From NCBI RefSeq assembly GCF_031127875.1, contig NZ_JARXIA010000001.1, forward strand, positions 1-64,000: DNA of 64,000 bases, in the 5' to 3' direction. Within the stretch, counting starts at the first letter, position 1. Every line of letters begins with the position of its first letter. This stretch comes from Pelagicoccus sp. SDUM812005 (GTDB lineage Bacteria > Verrucomicrobiota > Verrucomicrobiia > Opitutales > Opitutaceae). The position numbers and the translations under genes were made by a program. Shown here one piece after another: positions 18,954-32,196 of the stretch. The notes beneath the pieces were generated by a model that worked only from the letters and a program-made list of their open reading frames with translations, did no database searches and was not told the DNA's origin.

Positions 18954-19010
18954 CAGTAAAGCGGGAATCGGAGGAATCCGGCTGACTGTCTGACGCGTTA
19001 CAAGGTTGCA

Positions 19011-19025
19011 GGGGGACGTTCCCCC
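19011..19025. promoter_or_regulatory. GC dyad directly upstream of TonB-dependent receptor start
   Basis: GGGGGACGTTCCCCC is a 6-bp perfect inverted repeat with a 3-base centre, ending 10 bp before the receptor ATG. It could be an operator or an RNA hairpin over the initiation region; no matching regulator is known from the window. Confidence 0.35.
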
Positions 19026-19035
19026 GCTTGTAGCC

Positions 19036-21066
19036 ATGTGTGTGACCATTCGACCTCCTTTGCCTTTTGCATTTTCTGTTGCTTGCCTTGTAGTTGCTTG
19101 TGAACTACAGGCTCACGACGCGGTTTACCTGCCCGGTTTCGAAGTGACCGGACAGGATACGCCCTTGCACGGGGAGGCCATCAGCGCCTCGCAAGGGTTC
19201 GCGGGCGGGAGCGACCTGTCGCTAAGTATGGCGGATGGAGCGGGCGGCTTGCTGGAAGCGGTGCCGGGAATGGTTGCCACCCAGCACAGCGGCTCGGGCA
19301 AGGCGAACCAATACTTTTTGCGCGGCTTCAATCTCGACCACGGGACGGACTTCTCGGTTTCGGTGGACGGGATGCAGGTGAATACGCCGAGCCATGGGCA
19401 TGGACAGGGCTACGCTGACGTTAATTTCCTGATTCCGGAGATGGTCTCGATGGTTTCGTACTTGAAGGGGCCCTACTACGCTTTGGTAGGGGACTTCGCC
19501 TCGACCGGCTCCGCCAGCCTCCAGCTAAGGAACGTGTTGGAACAGGATTTCGCCGAGCTCGCCTTGGAGGAGCACGGTCGGCAGAGAGTGGTTGCAGGCA
19601 TGGGGCGCGATTGGGGAAAGGCTGACACGATCTTCGCGTTGGAGCTGGAGTCGAACGACGGGCCTTGGGAGCTCGACGAGAATTTGGACAAGCGAAACGC
19701 CTTGTTTCGCCTTTCCGGCGGCAGCTACGACGAGCGGTATTCGGTAACGGCGATGTCCTACGACTCCAGTTGGGACGCGACCGACCAGATCCCGGAGCGC
19801 TCGGTGCAAGCGGGTGAGCTCTCGGACTTCGGTTTCGTGGATCCGACAGTAGGCGGCAGGACGACCCGGTATAGCGTATCGGCAAATTGGAGACGAGACG
19901 TGGGCCACGTGAGGACTTTTGCGACGGCGTACGCGATCCACTACGACATGAACCTATGGTCGAACTTCACCTATTTCTTGGAGGATCCTGAGAATGGCGA
20001 CCAGTTCGAGCAGGCGGACCGACGGCAAAGCTACGGCATGACCTTTGGGAAAACGTTTTATTACCAGGAACTTTTCGGTAAGCAGATGAGCCAGACCGTT
20101 GCCCTGCAAGGCCGGTGGGACGCCATCGACCGATTAGGTCTGTACGCGACGAAGGAGCGGGAGCGGCTTGCGACAGTGAGGGAAGATGTAGCGGATGTGG
20201 TTTCCACTGCTTTGGCGTACGAAGCGAAGATCGATTGGACGCCTCGTTTCAGGAGTCACCTCGGGCTTCGTATCGATGGTACGGATATGTCGGTGAGAGG
20301 CGAACAGGCGGGAAATACGGGCAGCGCTACGGATTGGATCGCTAGCCCCAAGCTGAATCTCGTCTATACCATGAACGACTCGGTGGAGTGGTACGCGAGC
20401 GCGGGGGACGCCTTTCACAGCAATGACGCGCGAGGCGCGGCGGTGGGAATCGATCCTTTGGTACGTTCGCACGGAAGGGAAATTGGCGCTCGTTACCAGT
20501 TGTCAGGAAAAGTGAATACATCGATCGCTCTTTGGGACCTGGATCTCGATTCCGAGCTGCTGTATGTGGGGGATGCTGGCAGCACGGAGGCGTCACGGCC
20601 GAGCGAGCGGCAGGGAGTGGACTGGACGACGTTTTTCGCTTTGAGCGAAAAGGTGAATGCGGACCTGGATTTCGCCTGGAGCGACGCCCAGTTCAGTGAC
20701 AGCTCTCCCGACGGGAACTTGATTCCCGGGGTGGTCGAACGCAAGTGGGGCGCTGGCGTTTCGTACCAGTTGACCGAGTCGCTCAACTTGGCTGCTCGGT
20801 ATCGATATTTTGGAGGCAGGCCTTTGGTGGAGGACGGGAGCGTCTATTCGGAGGCGTCCGACAGCGTGTCGCTGCGTTTGAGCCGAGAAGGCGAATCGTG
20901 GGATTGGACGGTGCAAGTCTCTAACCTTTTTGATTCTCGGGATCCGGACATTAGCTACTATTACGAGTCGCGTCTGCCCGGGGAATCGTTGGCAGGAGTG
21001 GCCGACATCCATTCCCATGTGATGAAGCCACGCACGGTACAGCTGCGCGTGAAGCGGAAATTTTAG
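19036..21066 (+). CDS. TonB-dependent outer-membrane receptor
   Basis: A 676-residue receptor with a signal peptide (about 1-26, ending ACELQA), a plug domain (LPGFEVTG, then QYFLRGFNLDHGTDFSVSVDG and PSHGHGQGYADVNFLIPE) and a 22-strand barrel ending in RTVQLRVKRKF, with the terminal Phe needed for barrel insertion. The His-rich HGHGQGYADVNFLIP plug motif marks a specific receptor family that I believe is often linked to metal or cofactor uptake, but the substrate is not established. ATG 19036 is preferred to an earlier frame start at 19006 because the signal peptide begins there. The TonB genes at 3620-5173 could energise it. Confidence 0.92.
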   Translation: MCVTIRPPLPFAFSVACLVVACELQAHDAVYLPGFEVTGQDTPLHGEAISASQGFAGGSDLSLSMADGAGGLLEAVPGMVATQHSGSGKANQYFLRGFNLDHGTDFSVSVDGMQVNTPSHGHGQGYADVNFLIPEMVSMVSYLKGPYYALVGDFASTGSASLQLRNVLEQDFAELALEEHGRQRVVAGMGRDWGKADTIFALELESNDGPWELDENLDKRNALFRLSGGSYDERYSVTAMSYDSSWDATDQIPERSVQAGELSDFGFVDPTVGGRTTRYSVSANWRRDVGHVRTFATAYAIHYDMNLWSNFTYFLEDPENGDQFEQADRRQSYGMTFGKTFYYQELFGKQMSQTVALQGRWDAIDRLGLYATKERERLATVREDVADVVSTALAYEAKIDWTPRFRSHLGLRIDGTDMSVRGEQAGNTGSATDWIASPKLNLVYTMNDSVEWYASAGDAFHSNDARGAAVGIDPLVRSHGREIGARYQLSGKVNTSIALWDLDLDSELLYVGDAGSTEASRPSERQGVDWTTFFALSEKVNADLDFAWSDAQFSDSSPDGNLIPGVVERKWGAGVSYQLTESLNLAARYRYFGGRPLVEDGSVYSEASDSVSLRLSREGESWDWTVQVSNLFDSRDPDISYYYESRLPGESLAGVADIHSHVMKPRTVQLRVKRKF

Positions 21067-21858: not shown

Positions 21859-24800
21859 ATGTTTAGACCAACCCGCTTACTACGTGGGATAGCTGCTGCT
21901 TTGGCTGCATTTTCAGCTATCCTGTTGACTCAAATCCAAGCCCAGCCGCACCAGCTGGAGTTTCTCGACCGAGGCCTTGTCGCCGTTAAGGCGAATGAGG
22001 CGCAGATCTACGTGACCTGGCGATTGCTGGTGAGCGATTCGGATGAAGTCGGCTTTAACGTTTACCGCTCGGCCAACGGTCAGCCGGCCACCCGCTTGAA
22101 TGCGTCGCCCTTGTTCGCGACCACGGACTATACTGATAGCGCTGCTGATCTTTCTGTATCCAATTCCTATTACGTGCGTCCGGTGAAGAACGGGGTCGAG
22201 CTTGCTGCGAGCCGTCCCTTCGAAATTGCGGCGGGCGCTCCGGTGCAGCAGTACCTGAGTCTTCCGCTTCAGATACCGGAGGGAGGGACGACGCCCGACG
22301 GGGTCGAGTATTCCTATTCGGCGAATGACCTTTCGGTGGGAGATCTCGACGGGGACGGTCGCTACGAGATCGTGGTGAAGTGGTACCCTTCGAACGCGAA
22401 GGACAACGCCCAGTCCGGTCACACGGGCAATTGCTTGCTCGATGCCTACACCTTGGAAGGGGAGTTGTTGTGGCGGATCGATCTTGGCGTGAATATCCGC
22501 TCCGGATCTCACTACACGCAGTTTATCGTGTACGATCTCGATGGAGACGGCATCGCCGAGTTGGCCTGCCGTACGGCGGAAGGTTCGATGGACGCGAGCG
22601 GCGCTTTCGTGGGAGCGGAGGAAAAGTGGTTTGGCGATCGTCCGCCGATGGATCATAGCGCGGACCGCCGCAATGGCAGTGGATACATTCTGGATGGACC
22701 GGAGTTTCTTACCGTTTTCGATGGTCGCACAGGGCTCGAGCTCTCTTCGACCTTGTACGAGCCGCAGCGCGTTCCGGGAACTTATTTCCCGACGCCAGCG
22801 GAAACGGAAGCGATCTGGGGAGATGGATACGGCAACCGCATTGACCGTTTCTTAGGCACGGTTGCGTACCTCGATGGCGAGCGTCCGAGCCTTGTCATGT
22901 GTCGTGGATACTACACGGGTCGCAATGGCATTCCCGGGCGAACGGTGTTGGCGGCTTACGACTGGCGTGATGGAGTGCTCAGCAAGCGTTGGGTGTTCGA
23001 TACCTATGGCAATCCGGAGAACGATTCCTATCGTGGACAAGGGGCCCACAGCGTAACGGTAGGCGACGTGGATGGCGATGGCCGCGACGAAATCGTCTAC
23101 GGCGCCTGCGCCATCGACGACGACGGTACTGGACTTTACAATACAGGCATCGGTCATGGAGACGCGCTGCACCTGTCCGACATGGATCCGGATCGTCCCG
23201 GTTTGGAGGTTTGGATGCCGCACGAGTCTCCGTCGAGCTATGGCGAATACGGTTCGGAGCTGCACGATGCGGCGACGGGCGAGGTCTTGTTCGGCGTTTC
23301 GGGCGAAGGCTCGGACGTGGGTCGCGGCGCCGCAGCCGATATTGATCCGCGCTACCGTGGCTATGAAACGTGGGCGTCGCGTGGTGGCGTTCACTCGATT
23401 ACGGGCGAGTCTATTCCGACCAACGGAAATCCGTCCATGAACTTCCTGGTTTGGTGGGACGAGGATCCGCTGCGCGAATTGTTGGATGGAACTCGCATCG
23501 ACAAGTGGAACTGGAACTTGGGGGTGCGGGAAGAGATCTTCACCGATACGGGCATTTCTTCGAACAACTCTACCAAGGCGACTCCCAACTTGAGTGGTGA
23601 CATCTATGGCGACTGGCGCGAGGAGGTCATCTGGCGTTCGACCGATAGCTCCGAATTACGCATCTATAGCACGATCATTCCGGCGAGAAACCGGATGACG
23701 ACCTTGATGCACGATCGTCAGTACCGCATTGCGATCAGCTGGCAAAACGTAGCTTACAACCAACCGCCGCACCCCAGCTTCTTCATTGGAGAAGGGATGG
23801 CGACGCCTCCGAAGCCGGACTATTTTTACGCGAGCTCGAACGAAGCCCCGTTGGTAGAGCTGGTTTCTCCTGGGGAAGGTAGCATCTTTGAGGAAGGCGA
23901 TGTGGCTTCGCTGGTTGCGGAAGCGGCCGATGTCGATGGAAGCGTAGACGCGGTCGAGTTTTTCGAGAACGCGAGCTTCTTGGGAACGGATCTGACCGAT
24001 CCTTATACGGCGCTTTGGGACGCGAGCAACGGCGGTTCCTATCTCCTGAGAGCAGTGGCCACCGACAACGAGGGGCTGCAGTCCGTCTCGCTTCCGGTGA
24101 CGGTAACGGTGGGCCACACGGAGTCTCATGACGAAGCAACTGCGGAGAGCGGCTGGACGCCTTTGGAATCCGAGCATGCCGGGTATCGAGGCGATGGATA
24201 CTTCGCTTTTAGCCGCCCTTGGCATTTTATCGAGTTTAGCGAATTGGACGGCGGCCTGGTAGGAGGTGAGAAAACGTTGCGTATCCGCTACAGCGCGGCA
24301 CGCCCAGGCGTGAACCCTTGCTTTCTGATCGTGAACGGGGTGCGTCAAATGATCCAATTGCCGTCGACCGGCGCTTGGACGGAGTGGCGTACCTTCGAAA
24401 TCAAGGTGCCGCTCGATAGTGGTCCGGTGAATACAGTGCGTTTGCAAGCGCGCGGCGGTCAGGCGATGATCGATGAGTTGACGGTCGCGGGCGTGGTCCG
24501 CAACCAGGATCCGGAGCTCGATCTGGTCACGCCGCAGAACGGAGCGAGCTTCGCGGAAGGCTCCGACATCTTGATCCGTGTGCAGGCTCAGGACATCGGC
24601 GGCGCTATTGCGTCGGTGGAATTTTTTGCGGGAGAGGTGTCGCTCGGCAGCGTGACCGAAGCGCCTTACCAACTCGCTTGGAACGGTGTGAGCGAGGGGC
24701 TCTACACGCTTAAGGCCAGGGCGACTGACGATCTCGGCGCGAGCGCTGAATCGAACGAAGCGGTGGTGCTCGTGAACAATCCTCCGAGTGTGGCGATCAG

Positions 24801-27800
24801 CGCTCCTAGCCCGGGAGCTTACATTCCTTCTGGCGAAGTGGTTACGATCGTAGCGGATGCGGACGACGGCGTTGGCAACGTTGCGGCGGTAGACTTTTTC
24901 GAGGGCGAGAATCTGCTCGGCAGCGATTCCGAAGCACCGTTTTCGATGGATTGGTCGAGCGAAGTGGAGGGGCCTTACAGCTTTTCTGCGGTGGCGACCG
25001 ACAATCGCGGAGCGTCGACGCGTTCGCGGTCCGTGGAGGTCACGGTAAATCCGGCTGGATACAGTGTGGTCTACCAGGCGGAGGACGCCACTCTAGCGGG
25101 CGATTCCGCGCCGGAGTCGACCAATGCCGGCTTTAACGGAACGGGTTACGTCAACTCGCCCACGGAAGGTGGCTCGATCCTTTTCGAAAACGTGGACGGC
25201 GGTTCCGGTAGCATGGCTATCCTGCGGATTCGCTATGCGCTCGGCGCGGCAGCGTCCCGTACGGGAAGGCTCACGGTGAATGGCGCCAGCCAGGATATTG
25301 AGTTTCCGCCAACCGGTAGTTGGACGACGTATACGACGATGGATTTGCCGTTTCCCTTCGACGCGATGGAATCGAACTCCGTCGAGATCGAGTCGACCGG
25401 CGAAGACCTTGCCAACATCGACGAGATCGCGGTACTCGGCTTGCAGAGCGAAGAAGATCGTACCTACCACGCGGAAAACGCGGATGCGGAAAACGTATCG
25501 CTCGAATCGAACAACGCCGGCTTTAACGGAACCGGATTCTACAACTTCCCAAGCTCGGATGGAGTGCTCGAATTCCGCGAGATCGACGGCGGTATTGGCG
25601 GCAGCATTACGATGCGGGTTCGCTATGCTCTCGGAGCGTCGGGTGTGCGTACGGGAACGCTCACGATCAACGGTGTCGCGTCGCCGATCGACTTCCCATC
25701 CACCGGAGCTTGGACTTCTTATCAGTTCATCGAGTTGAACGTTTCCTTGCTGGCGGGACCTCAGAATACGATCCGCATCGCCTCGATCGGGAACGACCTT
25801 GGCAATGTCGACGAGATCGTGCTTTCCGGAATCACTCCGAACGAAATTCCAGAGGTTACGCTGCTCACTCCGACCGATCAGGAGAGCGATCCCGTTCGCG
25901 TATTCGCGGTGGGTGATTCCACAGTCGCGTCCTACGGCAGCAACTACTATCCGCAGCGTGGATGGGGCCAGGAGCTCCAGCATTTCTTGTACGATGGGGC
26001 GTTCGAGGTGGTCAACCGCGCTCGCGGTGGACGCAGCTCTCGCAGCTATATCGAAGAAGGGATCTGGGATTCCTTGAAGGCGGAGTTGGCGGAGGGCGAT
26101 TACGTCTTGATCCAATTCGGACACAACGATCGCGATTGGTCGAAGGCCGAGCGCTATACGCCGCCGGCTGACTACAAGGTCTACTTGGCTCAGTACGTCA
26201 ACGAGGCGCGAGCCCTGGGCGCGAACCCGATCCTTGTCACTCCGATGGTTATGAACGCTTGGAGAGACGGCGTCATGCGCAACGTCTTCACCGAGTCTGG
26301 AAACGATTACGCGGGAGCCATGAAGGAAGTGGCTGCGGAACTGAGCGTGCCGCTAGTCGATCTCAATGCCAAGTCGCACGCGTTCTTCAGCGTCATGGAC
26401 TACGAGACCGCAGGCCGCTATTACTTCAACAAGTATGAAGCGGGTGAGTACGCGAACTTTCCGGATGGCATCAACGACGGTACGCACTTCCAGCAAATGG
26501 GAGCCCTGCTGATGGCTAAGTTCATCGCCGAAGGATTCCGTGAACTTGAAGACGATGCCATCGTGGGCGAGCTCGCTGCGGCGTTGAAGGCTCAGTATCC
26601 GATTTCCGTTAAAGCGAATGACGGTAGCTATGGTATTGTAACCTTGAATACAGAGCTTCCGGAAGGAGCTACTGTTACCCTGAAGGCTCTCGCGGCCGAG
26701 GGGCACAGTTTCGTTAGCTGGAAGGACGGGGACAATGAAGCGGTCGCAGCTACGAACATCCACACCTTTGAAATGGGGCGTGAAGGCCTGACGTTCATCG
26801 CTTACTTCGACAACGAGACCGCTGTTTCCGCTCCGGCACCAGGGAGCAAGATTCCTGCGGGTTCGAACTCGGGAAGCGGTTGGAGCGTTGGCGACGAAAT
26901 GCTTTTCACGGCGGATGCGACCGATCCCGATGGCTCAGTGGTGAAGGTGGAGTACTTCGCTCGCAATTCGGATAACAAGATCGGCGAAGCGACCGAAGCT
27001 CCCTACGCCTTCGTTTGGGCGGTGCAAGGGGGAGTCTACGAGGTCTGGGCGGAGGCGGTTGACGAGCATGGAGCCCGTGGTCGTTCGCAGTCCTATTTGG
27101 TAGACATCGATATCCAGAACGACGCGCCGACCGTCGAGCTTGTTAGCCCAGTTAATCGCGCGATTGTGGACGCGGGCTCGAACGTTACTATCGAAGCGAA
27201 TGCAGCGGACGCGGATGGGGAGATCCTTCGCGTCGAGTTCTACGCAAACGGGAGCCTCCTTGGTAGCGACGAAGAAGCGCCTTATGCCTTGGATTGGTCG
27301 GTGCCGGAGGCGGGTACCCATATCCTAGGCGTCAGGGCTGTGGATAATTTCGGCGAAGCCTCGGCCGTCGACGAAGTAAAGGTCTCTGCCTTCTTCGCGG
27401 AAGGAGGAGAGCTGTTGCAGGAGGCCGAAGACGGTATCCTGTCCGGCAACTTCGTGATCATCGATGACGTAGCTGCAAGCGGCGGAAAAGCGGTCGAAGC
27501 TTTCGGTGGAAGCGGGGAGGATTGGGTCGAGTTCCAGTTCAACGTGGAAGTCGGCGGCTTCTACCAGATCCGCGCCTTGGTGAAGGCGATCGACGGCAAC
27601 AACGACTCCATGTTCGTAACGATCGACGGCGACACCAGCACGACGCACACCTGGGATGTCGCTCGTTCCTCGAACTTCATCAACGACTATGTGAAGAATC
27701 GTCGCGGCGAGGATCCGGTGATCGTTCTTTTGCCGCGCGGCGCTCACGTGGTACGTTTCGCTTACCGCGAGCACCTGGAGCTCGACCAAGTCGAGTTGGA

Positions 27801-30324
27801 GCTCGTAACTGCTTTCGACGGGGAAGAGGTTCCTGAGCTTTCCATCTCCTTCACTTCCCCTGCGGATGGAGCTACTTTCGACCCGGGCGAGAGGGTAGAG
27901 ATCGCTGCGGACGCGTCTTCGACCGCAAGCGAGATTGCCTCGGTGCAGTTCTTCCTAAACGACGCGTTGCTAGCGGAAGATACAGAGGCTCCCTTTGAAG
28001 CGAGCATCGCAAGCGTGGAAGCAGGTTTGCACGTTCTCGCCGCGACGGCTTTCGACGAATACGGTTTCGAGTCCGAGCTGGTGACCCGTTCCTTCAGCGC
28101 TGCCATCGAAGCGACAGGCGGTTTGGTGCAGGAGGCGGAAGTTGGCGACCTCGTTGGCGCCGCCGCGATCATCGATGATTCGGCCGCGAGCGGAGGGAAG
28201 GCAGTTAACTTACCGGCAGGCGACTTCTCAGCGGCGTATGCGGCAGAGAACTACGTGGAGCTTCGATTCGCGATCGTCGATGCGGGCGAGTACCACATCC
28301 GCGTGCATTTGAATGCGATCGGCGTGCAGAACGATTCCATGTATGTATCGGTAGATGGAGCGCCAGCAGGCCAATACCTGTTCGACACTGCGAGCGGATC
28401 GGGCTACCTTGAGGATTTGGTGAGCCAGCGCGACGGTCCGGATCCGGTTGTGGTTAACCTGAGCGAAGGGGTGCATGTCATCCGTTTCGGCGCTCGCGAG
28501 ACGCTGTCCTTGGATAAGGTCGAGCTTGTGCACCTAGGCGCGGCGACCCATACGATCTACACGATTGGAGACTCCACCGTGGCGGATTACGCCGCCGGAT
28601 ACTATCCTCAAACCGGTTGGGGACAGGTGCTTGGAGCTTTCTTCGAAGATGAAGTCGAAGTGAAGAACCGCGCCCTTGGCGGCACCAGTTCCAAGAGCTA
28701 CTACGAGAACCATTGGGCTCCCGTGCTCGCGGAATTGAAGGAAGGAGACTTTGTCTTCATCCAGTTCGGGATCAACGACCGAGCGAACGACGAGGCCCGG
28801 AAAACGGATAAGGAAACCTTCAAGGCTTTCCTCACGAGCTTCGTTAACGACAGCAAGGCTGTGGGAGCCAATCCTGTATTGGTTTCTACAGTACGCCGTA
28901 ACGCTTGGAACGGAGAGTGGAATGGCGGCGATCCTGCGATCATGTACGACGCTTACCACGAGCACCCGGTGGCGACTCGTGAACTCGCTGGCGAAATTGG
29001 AGTTCCCCTGATCGATCTCGATCTCGAGTCGAAGGCTTTGATCGAGCCGCTGGGTAGCGCTTACGCTGGCCCCTTCATGTACATGAACTTGGCGGCGGAC
29101 GAATACCCGATCGGCGCCAAGGCGGACAATGTCCACTTCCAGGAAATGGGCGCCATCGAAATGGCTCGTCTCGTTGTGGAGGGGATCGAAGCCCTTTCTG
29201 GCGATGCGCAAGTGAGCGAGCTGATCGAATGGATCAAGCCGTCCTACGAAGTCGCGGTATCGAGCAACGATTCCAGCATGGGCTTGGTGACTCGCACCGC
29301 CGCTTATCCGGAGGGCGCGGCCGTGACGATCAAGGCGTTACCAAATGATGGATACGAGTTCGTGCAATGGGAAGATGCCAGCGGCGAGGTGGTTTCGACC
29401 GAACGAATGTTGAGATTCACCATGGAGGCATCGGCCAGGAGCTATCATGCAGTGTTCGCTCAAGGCGCTCCGGACATTGGCCTCGAATCCGATGCTACTT
29501 ATGCGTTGGTGAACCGGGGAAGCGGCCTTTACTTGCAAGTTACCTCGACCGGCAGCGTCGGCGGATCCCTGTCCCAGGAAGCCAGGAATGAGGACGGGTT
29601 CCAATCGTTCGGAATCACCGATCTCGGTGGTGGCAACTACGCTATCCTTGCCAAGGGGAATGGCGAAGGCGTCGACGCTTATAACAATGGCTCGGTGGGA
29701 ACGTGGACCGAGAACACCGGCAACGTAAACCAGCAATGGGCGATCACTCTTGGCGATGACGGTTACCGTATCCAGACTGCGAACCGCGGCGACTTCGTTC
29801 TCGGCGTCGGTGATGGGTCAGGGGCTGGAGCGGGCATCGTTTGGGCGGCGGATACGCAAAGCGCCTACCAGCGTTGGGACTTCGTGGAAGTGGTCGAGGC
29901 GGATCCGGTTACCGGTATCTTCTCGGGTGCGAGCTATACGATAGCAAACGTCGGAAGCGGCCTGCAGCTGCAAAACGTTTCCGGGCGAGAAATCACCCAA
30001 GGCGTGGCGACGGCGGCGGAAAACCAGAAGTTCACTATCACCAAGCTCGATAGCGGCGCCTATGCGATCACGGCTCACGGCAATTCCGAGAACCTGGACG
30101 CGTACAATGGAAACCAGACCGGGACATGGACCGCTGATTCCTCGAACGCGAATCAGAATTGGTGGGTTTCCGTGGAGGACGGGGCCTACCGCTTCGAATC
30201 GCGGTCTCGGATCGGCAACGTCTTGAGCGTCGATGGCGATAGCGTGGCGGATGGGGCGAACGTCGGTTGGTCGACGGACGTGGCCAGCGACTTCCAGCGC
30301 TGGACGCTTACCCTTGTTGAATAA
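21859..30324 (+). CDS. Giant multidomain rhamnogalacturonan-degrading enzyme (PL11 + 2x CE12)
   Basis: A 2821-residue secreted protein. Order of parts: signal peptide (1-28); PL11 rhamnogalacturonan lyase (about 30-655) with calcium motifs GDLDGDGRYE, YDLDGDG and GDVDGDGRDE; Ig-like (660-750); CBM35-like (755-885); two Ig-like (882-1065); two CBM-like repeats sharing NNAGFNGTG-type motifs (1066-1325); SGNH/CE12 acetylesterase 1 (1345-1585; S1354, D1540, H1543); repeat domain (1580-1653); two Ig-like (1653-1848); CBM-like (1848-1984); Ig-like (1992-2084); CBM-like (2087-2228); CE12 esterase 2 (2228-2450; S2239, D2423, H2426, with GIND where GHND is usual); repeat domain (2463-2535); two ricin-type trefoils (2545-2821). 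It would cleave and deacetylate the pectin backbone RG-I outside the cell. No membrane anchor or sorting signal is seen at its end. Confidence 0.93.
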   Translation: MFRPTRLLRGIAAALAAFSAILLTQIQAQPHQLEFLDRGLVAVKANEAQIYVTWRLLVSDSDEVGFNVYRSANGQPATRLNASPLFATTDYTDSAADLSVSNSYYVRPVKNGVELAASRPFEIAAGAPVQQYLSLPLQIPEGGTTPDGVEYSYSANDLSVGDLDGDGRYEIVVKWYPSNAKDNAQSGHTGNCLLDAYTLEGELLWRIDLGVNIRSGSHYTQFIVYDLDGDGIAELACRTAEGSMDASGAFVGAEEKWFGDRPPMDHSADRRNGSGYILDGPEFLTVFDGRTGLELSSTLYEPQRVPGTYFPTPAETEAIWGDGYGNRIDRFLGTVAYLDGERPSLVMCRGYYTGRNGIPGRTVLAAYDWRDGVLSKRWVFDTYGNPENDSYRGQGAHSVTVGDVDGDGRDEIVYGACAIDDDGTGLYNTGIGHGDALHLSDMDPDRPGLEVWMPHESPSSYGEYGSELHDAATGEVLFGVSGEGSDVGRGAAADIDPRYRGYETWASRGGVHSITGESIPTNGNPSMNFLVWWDEDPLRELLDGTRIDKWNWNLGVREEIFTDTGISSNNSTKATPNLSGDIYGDWREEVIWRSTDSSELRIYSTIIPARNRMTTLMHDRQYRIAISWQNVAYNQPPHPSFFIGEGMATPPKPDYFYASSNEAPLVELVSPGEGSIFEEGDVASLVAEAADVDGSVDAVEFFENASFLGTDLTDPYTALWDASNGGSYLLRAVATDNEGLQSVSLPVTVTVGHTESHDEATAESGWTPLESEHAGYRGDGYFAFSRPWHFIEFSELDGGLVGGEKTLRIRYSAARPGVNPCFLIVNGVRQMIQLPSTGAWTEWRTFEIKVPLDSGPVNTVRLQARGGQAMIDELTVAGVVRNQDPELDLVTPQNGASFAEGSDILIRVQAQDIGGAIASVEFFAGEVSLGSVTEAPYQLAWNGVSEGLYTLKARATDDLGASAESNEAVVLVNNPPSVAISAPSPGAYIPSGEVVTIVADADDGVGNVAAVDFFEGENLLGSDSEAPFSMDWSSEVEGPYSFSAVATDNRGASTRSRSVEVTVNPAGYSVVYQAEDATLAGDSAPESTNAGFNGTGYVNSPTEGGSILFENVDGGSGSMAILRIRYALGAAASRTGRLTVNGASQDIEFPPTGSWTTYTTMDLPFPFDAMESNSVEIESTGEDLANIDEIAVLGLQSEEDRTYHAENADAENVSLESNNAGFNGTGFYNFPSSDGVLEFREIDGGIGGSITMRVRYALGASGVRTGTLTINGVASPIDFPSTGAWTSYQFIELNVSLLAGPQNTIRIASIGNDLGNVDEIVLSGITPNEIPEVTLLTPTDQESDPVRVFAVGDSTVASYGSNYYPQRGWGQELQHFLYDGAFEVVNRARGGRSSRSYIEEGIWDSLKAELAEGDYVLIQFGHNDRDWSKAERYTPPADYKVYLAQYVNEARALGANPILVTPMVMNAWRDGVMRNVFTESGNDYAGAMKEVAAELSVPLVDLNAKSHAFFSVMDYETAGRYYFNKYEAGEYANFPDGINDGTHFQQMGALLMAKFIAEGFRELEDDAIVGELAAALKAQYPISVKANDGSYGIVTLNTELPEGATVTLKALAAEGHSFVSWKDGDNEAVAATNIHTFEMGREGLTFIAYFDNETAVSAPAPGSKIPAGSNSGSGWSVGDEMLFTADATDPDGSVVKVEYFARNSDNKIGEATEAPYAFVWAVQGGVYEVWAEAVDEHGARGRSQSYLVDIDIQNDAPTVELVSPVNRAIVDAGSNVTIEANAADADGEILRVEFYANGSLLGSDEEAPYALDWSVPEAGTHILGVRAVDNFGEASAVDEVKVSAFFAEGGELLQEAEDGILSGNFVIIDDVAASGGKAVEAFGGSGEDWVEFQFNVEVGGFYQIRALVKAIDGNNDSMFVTIDGDTSTTHTWDVARSSNFINDYVKNRRGEDPVIVLLPRGAHVVRFAYREHLELDQVELELVTAFDGEEVPELSISFTSPADGATFDPGERVEIAADASSTASEIASVQFFLNDALLAEDTEAPFEASIASVEAGLHVLAATAFDEYGFESELVTRSFSAAIEATGGLVQEAEVGDLVGAAAIIDDSAASGGKAVNLPAGDFSAAYAAENYVELRFAIVDAGEYHIRVHLNAIGVQNDSMYVSVDGAPAGQYLFDTASGSGYLEDLVSQRDGPDPVVVNLSEGVHVIRFGARETLSLDKVELVHLGAATHTIYTIGDSTVADYAAGYYPQTGWGQVLGAFFEDEVEVKNRALGGTSSKSYYENHWAPVLAELKEGDFVFIQFGINDRANDEARKTDKETFKAFLTSFVNDSKAVGANPVLVSTVRRNAWNGEWNGGDPAIMYDAYHEHPVATRELAGEIGVPLIDLDLESKALIEPLGSAYAGPFMYMNLAADEYPIGAKADNVHFQEMGAIEMARLVVEGIEALSGDAQVSELIEWIKPSYEVAVSSNDSSMGLVTRTAAYPEGAAVTIKALPNDGYEFVQWEDASGEVVSTERMLRFTMEASARSYHAVFAQGAPDIGLESDATYALVNRGSGLYLQVTSTGSVGGSLSQEARNEDGFQSFGITDLGGGNYAILAKGNGEGVDAYNNGSVGTWTENTGNVNQQWAITLGDDGYRIQTANRGDFVLGVGDGSGAGAGIVWAADTQSAYQRWDFVEVVEADPVTGIFSGASYTIANVGSGLQLQNVSGREITQGVATAAENQKFTITKLDSGAYAITAHGNSENLDAYNGNQTGTWTADSSNANQNWWVSVEDGAYRFESRSRIGNVLSVDGDSVADGANVGWSTDVASDFQRWTLTLVE

Positions 30325-30984: not shown

Positions 30985-32196
30985 ATGTCTGTAGTTGGTA
31001 GCAAACTACGTTTTGGGTTGGCGAGCAGTCTCCTCTTGGGGGGCTGCTTGCTTTCGTTTTATGCGGGACGTTGGAGCGCGGAAGGGGGCGAGGCGAGCGA
31101 AACAGCGAGGCTGATGCGGCTGGAGGGCCGCGGGCTCGATTCGGGTTCCCCGCTGTCGGTAGTGCCGGTGCCGGCTCCGGCCGGGAAGGCTTCGGCTGTT
31201 GCGCCGGAGCTTGGGAACATGGAGTCGACGGATCGGAACTTTGCGCGGCGGCTAGCCTTGCTCAAGGGAGAGCTCGGGCGGCTGGCGGAGAGGGATCCGG
31301 CGAGAGCTTTGGCTTTGGCGGACGGGGAGCGTTTCGAGGTGGATCGACGGGAGTTGCGTTTGGCGGCGCTGCAAGGGTGGGCCAAGTCCGATCCGGCTGC
31401 GGCGCTGGCGGCGGCCTTGGAATGGGACGAGGCGGAGGCGGCGGTGAAGGCGGTTTTGAGCGGAGCTGCGGTCGATCCGCAGGCGGCGACGGAGCTCTAT
31501 GCTCGCTTGCGGGCAGAGGGAGCGCTTTCGAAGCCGGAGCTGCAGAGGACGCAGCTCGCTTTGGTGGTGGCCTTGGCGGACGAGGGGAATTTCGAGCAGG
31601 CCCTTGCCATGGCCCGGAGCGAGGGCGAGGCGCGGCGGCGTCAGGAATTGTTGACGGCTGGGTTTTCCCGTTGGAGTCGCTTCGAGCCGGAGTTTGCGGT
31701 GGTCGCGGCCATGGACATCGAGGACCGGACGGAACGGCAGGAGGCCTACTCGGTGGTGACGGCGACTTGGAGCGAGGTCGATCCGGCGGGGCTGGCGCAG
31801 TTTGCGGAGAAACTGCCGCAGGGGGAGCCGCGTGCGTTGGCGATGAGCCGCGCCTTGCAGCAATGGGTCGGACGCTCGCCGCAGGAGGCTGCCCAGTGGC
31901 TGGAGAGCCGCGGGCCGGCCCAGGAGCTGGACGTTGGGGTGTTGGCTTTGGCGACGCATCCGTACCTTGCGGAGCGGAGCCCGCAGGTCGCGGTGAGTTG
32001 GGCGGAATCGCTTTGGGACGAAAATTTGCGGGCGGATACGGTGGCTTTGGTGGTGAAGCAATGGGCGGCGACCGACCGGAAGGCGGCGATTCGCTACGTG
32101 CGGGAGCATGCGGGCCTTGGCTTGCCGGAGCGGCAGGAGTTGCTCGCTCTCTTTGGCGAGTCCAAGGAATTTGGCATCGACGGGCCTTTGCCGTGA
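30985..32196 (+). CDS. Membrane-anchored helical-repeat protein, function unknown
   Basis: A 403-residue protein with an N-terminal membrane or signal segment (about 9-28, SSLLLGGCLLSFYAG; the Cys may be a lipidation site) and a long all-helical domain of about 30-residue repeats with the recurring pattern W-x3-DPxxA (GWAKSDPAAALAAAL, TWSEVDPAGLAQF, QWVGRSPQEAAQWL, QWAATDRKAAIRYV). Such repeats occur in many uncharacterised verrucomicrobial proteins and resemble TPR/HEAT-like scaffolds. It starts 3 bp after the VPDSG-CTERM gene, so the two are translated from one message. No catalytic motif is seen. Confidence 0.7.
   Translation: MSVVGSKLRFGLASSLLLGGCLLSFYAGRWSAEGGEASETARLMRLEGRGLDSGSPLSVVPVPAPAGKASAVAPELGNMESTDRNFARRLALLKGELGRLAERDPARALALADGERFEVDRRELRLAALQGWAKSDPAAALAAALEWDEAEAAVKAVLSGAAVDPQAATELYARLRAEGALSKPELQRTQLALVVALADEGNFEQALAMARSEGEARRRQELLTAGFSRWSRFEPEFAVVAAMDIEDRTERQEAYSVVTATWSEVDPAGLAQFAEKLPQGEPRALAMSRALQQWVGRSPQEAAQWLESRGPAQELDVGVLALATHPYLAERSPQVAVSWAESLWDENLRADTVALVVKQWAATDRKAAIRYVREHAGLGLPERQELLALFGESKEFGIDGPLP

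What the first reader, a model, noticed from the sequence alone, without database searches (positions are those of the whole stretch)
21859..30324. A 2821-residue all-in-one pectin backbone enzyme with one lyase and two acetylesterases
Seen: PL11 lyase, two CE12-type SGNH domains with intact Ser and Asp-x2-His residues, at least six Ig-like modules, about five CBM-like modules and two ricin-type trefoils in one frame. Known: PL11 cuts and CE12 deacetylates rhamnogalacturonan I, normally as separate proteins. Inference: one polypeptide both deacetylates and cleaves RG-I, like a covalent cellulosome. The second esterase has GIND where GHND is usual, so its specificity may differ.
Basis: partly seen in the sequence, partly recalled or inferred. 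Interest (0 to 1): 0.65.

Follow-up and report, generated by a model that had tools for sequence, protein, structure and literature searches.

The report
Giant three-enzyme pectin (RG-I) degrader
One very large, probably secreted protein of a bacterium in the Opitutaceae family carries on one chain an enzyme predicted to cut the rhamnogalacturonan part of pectin and two different enzymes predicted to strip its acetyl groups, plus sugar-binding modules; such lyase-esterase fusions were already known elsewhere, so this is a new, larger variant rather than a new kind of system.

Summary
In detail: window 21859-30324 (+) is one intact 2821-codon frame. Both esterases keep Ser, Gly, Asn and Asp-x-x-His, and their models match rhamnogalacturonan acetylesterase and YxiM best. 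It is not an assembly artefact: two other species of the genus carry the same PL11-CE12-CE12 order at 68-75% identity, between fabD and lepA.

Coupling of PL11 with CE12 is well supported: the nearest outside relatives of both esterases are separate genes in one Bacteroidia polysaccharide utilization locus that also holds PL11. But PL11+CE12 fusions are already described (Ruminococcus, Paenibacillus, 50 CAZy entries), and I found the full trio in two Paenibacillaceae, apparently of independent origin. No cohesin or dockerin is present. GIND also occurs in YxiM, arises more than once on the tree and leaves the catalytic Asn intact, so by itself it says little about specificity. Best reading: a new variant of a known kind. 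Activities are inferred, not shown.

The parts
21859..30324 (+). Whole gene: multimodular PL11-CE12-CE12 protein, 2821 aa, 302 kDa
   Evidence: orthologs
21859..21942 (+). Putative Sec signal peptide (residues 1-28, end ...TQIQA/QPHQ; read by eye, no prediction program available)
   Evidence: sequence; similar N-terminus in orthologs
21949..22221 (+). RGI_lyase beta-sheet domain of PL11 (residues 31-121)
   Evidence: 9.5e-19
22252..23817 (+). PL11 catalytic beta-propeller RGL11_C (residues 132-653); lacks the loop insert seen in YesX
   Evidence: 5.6e-225; alignment to 4CAG, YesW, YesX
23848..24051 (+). Big_7 Ig-like module 1
24229..24471 (+). CBM_35_2/CBM_6-like module a (borderline Pfam score)
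24511..24717 (+). Big_7 Ig-like module 2
24772..25050 (+). Big_7 Ig-like module 3 (approximate limits)
   Evidence: (two Big_7 stretches in 24490-25110)
25075..25431 (+). CBM_6 module b
25471..25824 (+). CBM_6 module c
25900..26523 (+). CE12-type SGNH esterase 1 (GDST / GHND / DGTH)
26605..26814 (+). Flg_new_2 (InlB B-repeat) module behind esterase 1
26872..27123 (+). Big_7 Ig-like module 4 (approximate limits)
   Evidence: two Big_7 stretches in 26650-27450
27127..27327 (+). Big_7 Ig-like module 5
27394..27813 (+). CBM-like module d (weak CBM_35 match)
   Evidence: E 0.0087
27841..28038 (+). Big_7 Ig-like module 6
28078..28524 (+). CBM-like module e, 47% identical to module d; in both orthologs a ricin domain is inserted in it
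   Evidence: no Pfam match of its own
28537..29214 (+). CE12-type SGNH esterase 2 (GDST / GIND / DNVH)
29257..29463 (+). Flg_new_2 (InlB B-repeat) module behind esterase 2
29497..29877 (+). Ricin-type beta-trefoil 1
29896..30321 (+). Ricin-type beta-trefoil 2 (C-terminus)
19006..21066 (+). TonB-dependent receptor, kept next to the gene in three species and near the CE12-less twin in a fourth; substrate unknown
30985..32196 (+). 403-aa gene without Pfam match, kept downstream of the fused gene and of the CE12-less twin in G001

Best explanation
It is a secreted, non-cellulosomal RG-I-degrading protein. CBM, ricin and Ig modules would hold it on pectin-rich cell wall and space the catalytic units; the two CE12-type esterases remove acetyl groups from the pectin backbone (most likely galacturonate O-2/O-3 acetyl esters of RG-I), and the YesW-like PL11 unit cuts the exposed rhamnogalacturonan backbone by beta-elimination, probably in endo fashion. 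It arose when two esterase cassettes (CE12 plus InlB-type module) became joined to a PL11-Ig-CBM protein in this genus, doing on one chain what other bacteria do with neighbouring separate genes. Shown here: frame, modules, catalytic residues, orthologs with the same order, relatives as separate genes beside PL11, and a non-sister position relative to the Bacillota fusions. Inferred: activities, RG-I as substrate of the esterases, endo mode, cooperation in cis, secretion and wall binding.
For: PL11: Pfam 5.6e-225 and about 57% identity to YesW; 8 of 10 YesW cleft/metal residues that I recall from the structure papers are kept, and the insert specific to YesX is absent. CE12: both domains pass the Lipase_GDSL_2 cut-off, keep Ser/Gly/Asn/Asp-x-x-His, and their AlphaFold models match YxiM 2o14 (Z 24.9 and 21.9) and RG acetylesterase 1deo (Z 23.6 and 20.8) clearly above all other SGNH folds (at most 19.0 and 17.5). 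Purifying selection: dN/dS about 0.05-0.2 for PL11 and both esterases, although dS is near saturation. Same order in G007 and G005. CE12-less twins in G007 and G001 with otherwise colinear modules, and a stand-alone CE12-InlB-ricin protein in G011 closest to esterase 2, show cassette assembly. Pairing of function: the nearest outside relatives of BOTH esterases are two genes in one Bacteroidia locus with PL11, SusC and SusD; 29 of 80 PL11 loci from GTDB genomes have a CE12 fused or within about 9 kb; TonB receptor-PL11-CE12-GH28-rhaM order in Sphingomonas. The twin's locus in G001 has GH28, GH2 and a second PL11.
Against: No activity data. CE12 covers homogalacturonan and xylan esterases too; NCBIfam's best match for esterase 1 is PaeY, a pectin acetylesterase, far below its cut-off. 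No SusD or other RG-I hydrolase genes were found beside the window gene itself; neighbours include housekeeping genes (fabD, lepA, lepB). The fifth CBM-like module has no Pfam match, and binding of none of the modules to RG-I is known.
Confidence: 0.8

Rival explanations
1. The two esterases act on different substrates or positions: one on RG-I and the other on homogalacturonan, or one on O-2 and the other on O-3 acetyl groups, so the protein deacetylates pectin in general while only PL11 is RG-I specific. (This refines rather than excludes the best explanation.)
For: The esterases are two separate, well supported clades, each with a Bacteroidia member in the same PUL, so both types have been kept together in two phyla. 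Esterase 1 resembles PaeY in a weak match. Pectin galacturonate can be acetylated at C2 and/or C3 (abstract of PMC5465549).
Against: The GIND letter alone is not evidence: it occurs in YxiM and needs several changes on the tree. No biochemical data for either clade were found.
Confidence: 0.35
2. One or both esterase domains are inactive and serve as binding or spacer modules.
For: Multidomain CAZymes can carry decayed units; the same genome has a three-CE12 protein whose middle domain lacks the aligned catalytic Asp.
Against: All catalytic letters are intact in both domains in all three orthologs, with purifying selection.
Confidence: 0.07
3. The long frame is an assembly fusion of separate genes.
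For: None found; the contig is 959 kb of a 118-contig draft.
Against: Two other genomes have the same PL11-CE12-CE12 order with the same neighbours fabD, TonB receptor, orf403, lepA.
Confidence: 0.01

Closest known systems
Paenibacillus cellulosilyticus single ORF PL11-CE12-CE12 (L054, NZ_CP054613.1) and its relative in G652 (L197)
   Same: One PL11 followed by two CE12 domains on one chain
   Different: Other linkers (no Big_7/CBM6 array; its end looks, by eye, cohesin- and dockerin-like), 1976 aa, esterases in another CE12 clade; so apparently assembled independently
CE12-(CBM35)-PL11 proteins of Bacillota, e.g. P. amylolyticus Pamy_4308 and Metabacillus HUW50_16055 (PMC6339884, PMC10483417)
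   Same: CE12 and PL11 on one chain, proposed synergy
   Different: Reverse order and a single CE12
Ruminococcus albus 8 PL11-CE12-CBM13-CBM13-CBM37; R. flavefaciens PL11-Doc-CBM35-CE12 and CE12-CBM13-Doc-CBM35-CE12 (PMC4081043)
   Same: PL11/CE12 fusion in the same order; also a double-CE12 protein
   Different: One CE12 with PL11, partly cellulosomal through dockerin
Bacteroidia PUL in L109 (PL11, SusC, SusD, CE12, CE12)
   Same: The same three catalytic units, with the closest outside relatives of both esterases
   Different: Separate genes; the PL11 and one CE12 protein have a T9SS sorting tail
B. subtilis YesW (PL11, 2z8r), YxiM (2o14) and Aspergillus RG acetylesterase (1deo)
   Same: Folds and catalytic residues of the three units
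   Different: Single-unit proteins

Membership tests
Polysaccharide lyase family 11 | Full-length RGI_lyase + RGL11_C domains over curated cut-off | tested here: met
   68 and 748 bits against cut-offs of about 27-28
Polysaccharide lyase family 11 | Conserved cleft and metal residues of YesW (list recalled from the structure papers; YesW letters checked on the alignment) | tested here: met
   N156, H397, H433, R489, N570, T572, K573, Y633 kept; D172 is Y176 and G533 is S571, the latter also Ser in the Paenibacillus PL11
Polysaccharide lyase family 11 | Rhamnogalacturonan lyase activity | not testable with these tools
   needs an enzyme assay
Carbohydrate esterase family 12 (both domains) | SGNH blocks: GDS, Gly, GxND, DxxH | tested here: met
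Carbohydrate esterase family 12 (both domains) | Nearest solved folds are CE12 (1deo, 2o14) and not other SGNH families | tested here: met
   Z 23.6-24.9 and 20.8-21.9 against 19.0 and 17.5 for the next entry
Carbohydrate esterase family 12 (both domains) | Match to the CAZy/dbCAN CE12 model | not tested
   dbCAN is not among the libraries
Carbohydrate esterase family 12 (both domains) | Acetylesterase activity on RG-I | not testable with these tools
   needs an enzyme assay
Cellulosomal enzyme | Cohesin or dockerin module | tested here: not met
   no such Pfam match up to E 1
Canonical SusC/SusD PUL | SusC-SusD pair next to the enzyme gene | tested here: not met
   a TonB receptor is upstream but no SusD match in the flanking ORFs scanned

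The most novel reading that the evidence does not exclude
PL11 plus two complementary CE12 clades is a functional trio that evolution has gathered repeatedly (as one PUL in Bacteroidia, as one chain in Opitutaceae, and with other CE12s as another chain in Paenibacillaceae), because the two esterases remove different acetyl groups of RG-I and the lyase cannot proceed well without both.
Probability: 0.25. Interest if true: 0.5.

Novelty: new variant of a known kind. Interest (0 to 1): 0.33.

Why it matters
Fusions of PL11 and CE12 have been listed but, according to PMC10483417, none had been characterised. This protein supplies a natural construct in which cutting and deacetylation of RG-I are on one chain, with natural controls in the same genus (twins without the esterases) and separate-gene equivalents in Bacteroidia. 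That makes it possible to test whether linkage in cis helps, and whether two CE12 clades divide the labour on acetylated pectin.

Tried and rejected
Assembly fusion: rejected by two syntenic orthologs. GIND as a marker of one esterase subfamily: eight GIND rows need four changes on the CE12 tree, and the Bacillota and Streptomyces GIND rows fall elsewhere; a 296-genome Bacteroidota search with an esterase-2 model gave one strong match (the L109 genome, 3.7e-89), the others being much weaker and, where my motif search could read them, GHND. A shared origin with the Bacillota fusions: the window esterases and PL11 do not group with them (one search is a FastTree tree without bootstrap, so the PL11 part is the weaker one). 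Other PL11-CE12 fusions in Verrucomicrobiota: none among the long PL11 ORFs fetched from relatives and from a 241-genome sample; ORFs between about 850 and 1090 aa were mostly not fetched. Literature on YesT/YesY and on regiospecificity of CE12 gave nothing usable. Plasmid and phage collections: no full-length match.

Full report
Observation. The frame 21859-30324 (+) is open over 2821 codons. Pfam on the whole protein and on ten overlapping pieces gives, in order: RGI_lyase and RGL11_C (PL11), Big_7, CBM_35_2/CBM_6-like, Big_7, Big_7, CBM_6, CBM_6, GDSL/SGNH esterase 1, Flg_new_2, Big_7, Big_7, a weak CBM_35, Big_7, an unassigned module 47% identical to the previous CBM-like one, GDSL/SGNH esterase 2, Flg_new_2, and two ricin-type trefoils.

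Host. 

Catalytic units. The PL11 unit is about 57% identical to YesW over 571 aligned positions and aligns end to end with three solved PL11 enzymes. It lacks the loop insert of YesX, as do YesW and the 4CAG enzyme, so endo action is likely; that this loop makes YesX an exo-enzyme is from my knowledge of the structure work, not tested here. Both esterases keep GDST, the Gly, GxND and DxxH. AlphaFold models (mean pLDDT 81.5 and 76.6) match YxiM (2o14) and RG acetylesterase (1deo) better than other SGNH structures. The GIND of esterase 2 also occurs in YxiM (LGIND).

Reality of the frame. Two other species of the genus (G007, G005) have 2954- and 2959-aa proteins with the same PL11-CE12-CE12 order, 75 and 68% identical, in the same place: fabD, TonB receptor, fused gene, orf403, lepA. 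dN/dS for PL11 and the esterases lies at about 0.05-0.2, with dS near saturation, so the numbers are rough but clearly below one.

How it was assembled. G007 and G001 also have 1865- and 1848-aa twins whose PL11, Ig and CBM modules are colinear with the window protein but without either esterase and its B-repeat module. A 671-aa protein of G011 is a stand-alone CE12-InlB-ricin protein closest to esterase 2. Ricin modules have moved: in both orthologs one ricin domain lies inside CBM-like module e and another in front of esterase 2, where the window protein has none. The protein is a product of cassette shuffling; whether the twins lost the cassettes or never had them is not resolved.

Why the units belong together. 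On the tree of 82 CE12 domains the window's esterase 1 clade and esterase 2 clade each have one outside neighbour in the same Bacteroidia contig (L109), supports 100/96 and 99/96. That contig reads PL11, SusC, SusD, CE12, CE12. Among 80 PL11 loci from GTDB genomes, 8 have CE12 fused and 21 more have a CE12 gene within about 9 kb (the 80 are the best-scoring of 580, not a random sample). A Sphingomonas plasmid has TonB receptor, PL11, CE12, GH28-related, rhaM in a row. The CE12-less twin in G001 lies in one region with GH28, GH2, another PL11, the same TonB receptor and an orf403 relative.

What is known. PL11/CE12 fusions are in the literature: R. albus 8 PL11-CE12-CBM13-CBM13-CBM37 and R. flavefaciens PL11-Doc-CBM35-CE12 (PMC4081043), 50 CAZy proteins with CE12 and PL11_1 (PMC10483417), and P. 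amylolyticus Pamy_4308 (PMC6339884). Here I found further CE12-PL11 proteins in Paenibacillaceae and Microbacterium, and PL11-CE12-CE12 in P. cellulosilyticus and one more Paenibacillaceae genome. The esterases of those fusions sit in another starred clade than the window's and the PL11 units do not group with the window's either, so the Opitutaceae trio looks independently assembled.

Verdict. New variant of a known kind; interest 0.33.

Noticed in passing
L025:6087-8960 (G000:C31 about 584-587 kb): The same genome encodes a 957-aa protein with three CE12-type domains; similar proteins in G006 and G002. The middle domain has Ala where the aligned catalytic Asp of the Asp-x-x-His motif should be, in all copies seen, so it may be inactive or use an Asp one residue earlier.
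   Followed up: partly
window:30985-32196: A 403-aa protein without Pfam or NCBIfam match is kept behind the fused gene in three species, and a relative follows the CE12-less twin in a fourth, where lepA was not found next to it: a candidate partner of the RG-I system.
   Followed up: partly
window:19006-21066: TonB-dependent receptor between fabD and the fused gene; in G001 its best relative lies about 11 kb from the PL11 twin. Its best weak NCBIfam matches are siderophore-type, so its cargo is open.
   Followed up: partly
window:35622-40843 (-): Large Y_Y_Y sensor histidine kinase overlapping a hybrid histidine kinase with receiver domains, close to the enzyme; a Reg_prop histidine kinase also lies by the twin in G001. 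Possible sugar-sensing regulators.
   Followed up: no
window:46708-52507 (-): Type I secretion-like set: HlyD protein, ABC exporter with a C39-peptidase-like domain, response regulator and outer membrane efflux protein; no cargo looked for.
   Followed up: no
L020 and L021, CBM-like module e: In both orthologs a ricin-type trefoil is nested inside a CBM-like module, while the window protein has the uninterrupted module: a natural before/after pair for domain insertion.
   Followed up: partly
L078:4832-10827 and L123:5780-10836: Paenibacillus sedimenti and P. prosopidis have one GHND and one GIND CE12 gene side by side next to PL11, a separate-gene parallel to the window's pair, although not in the same CE12 clades.
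   Followed up: partly
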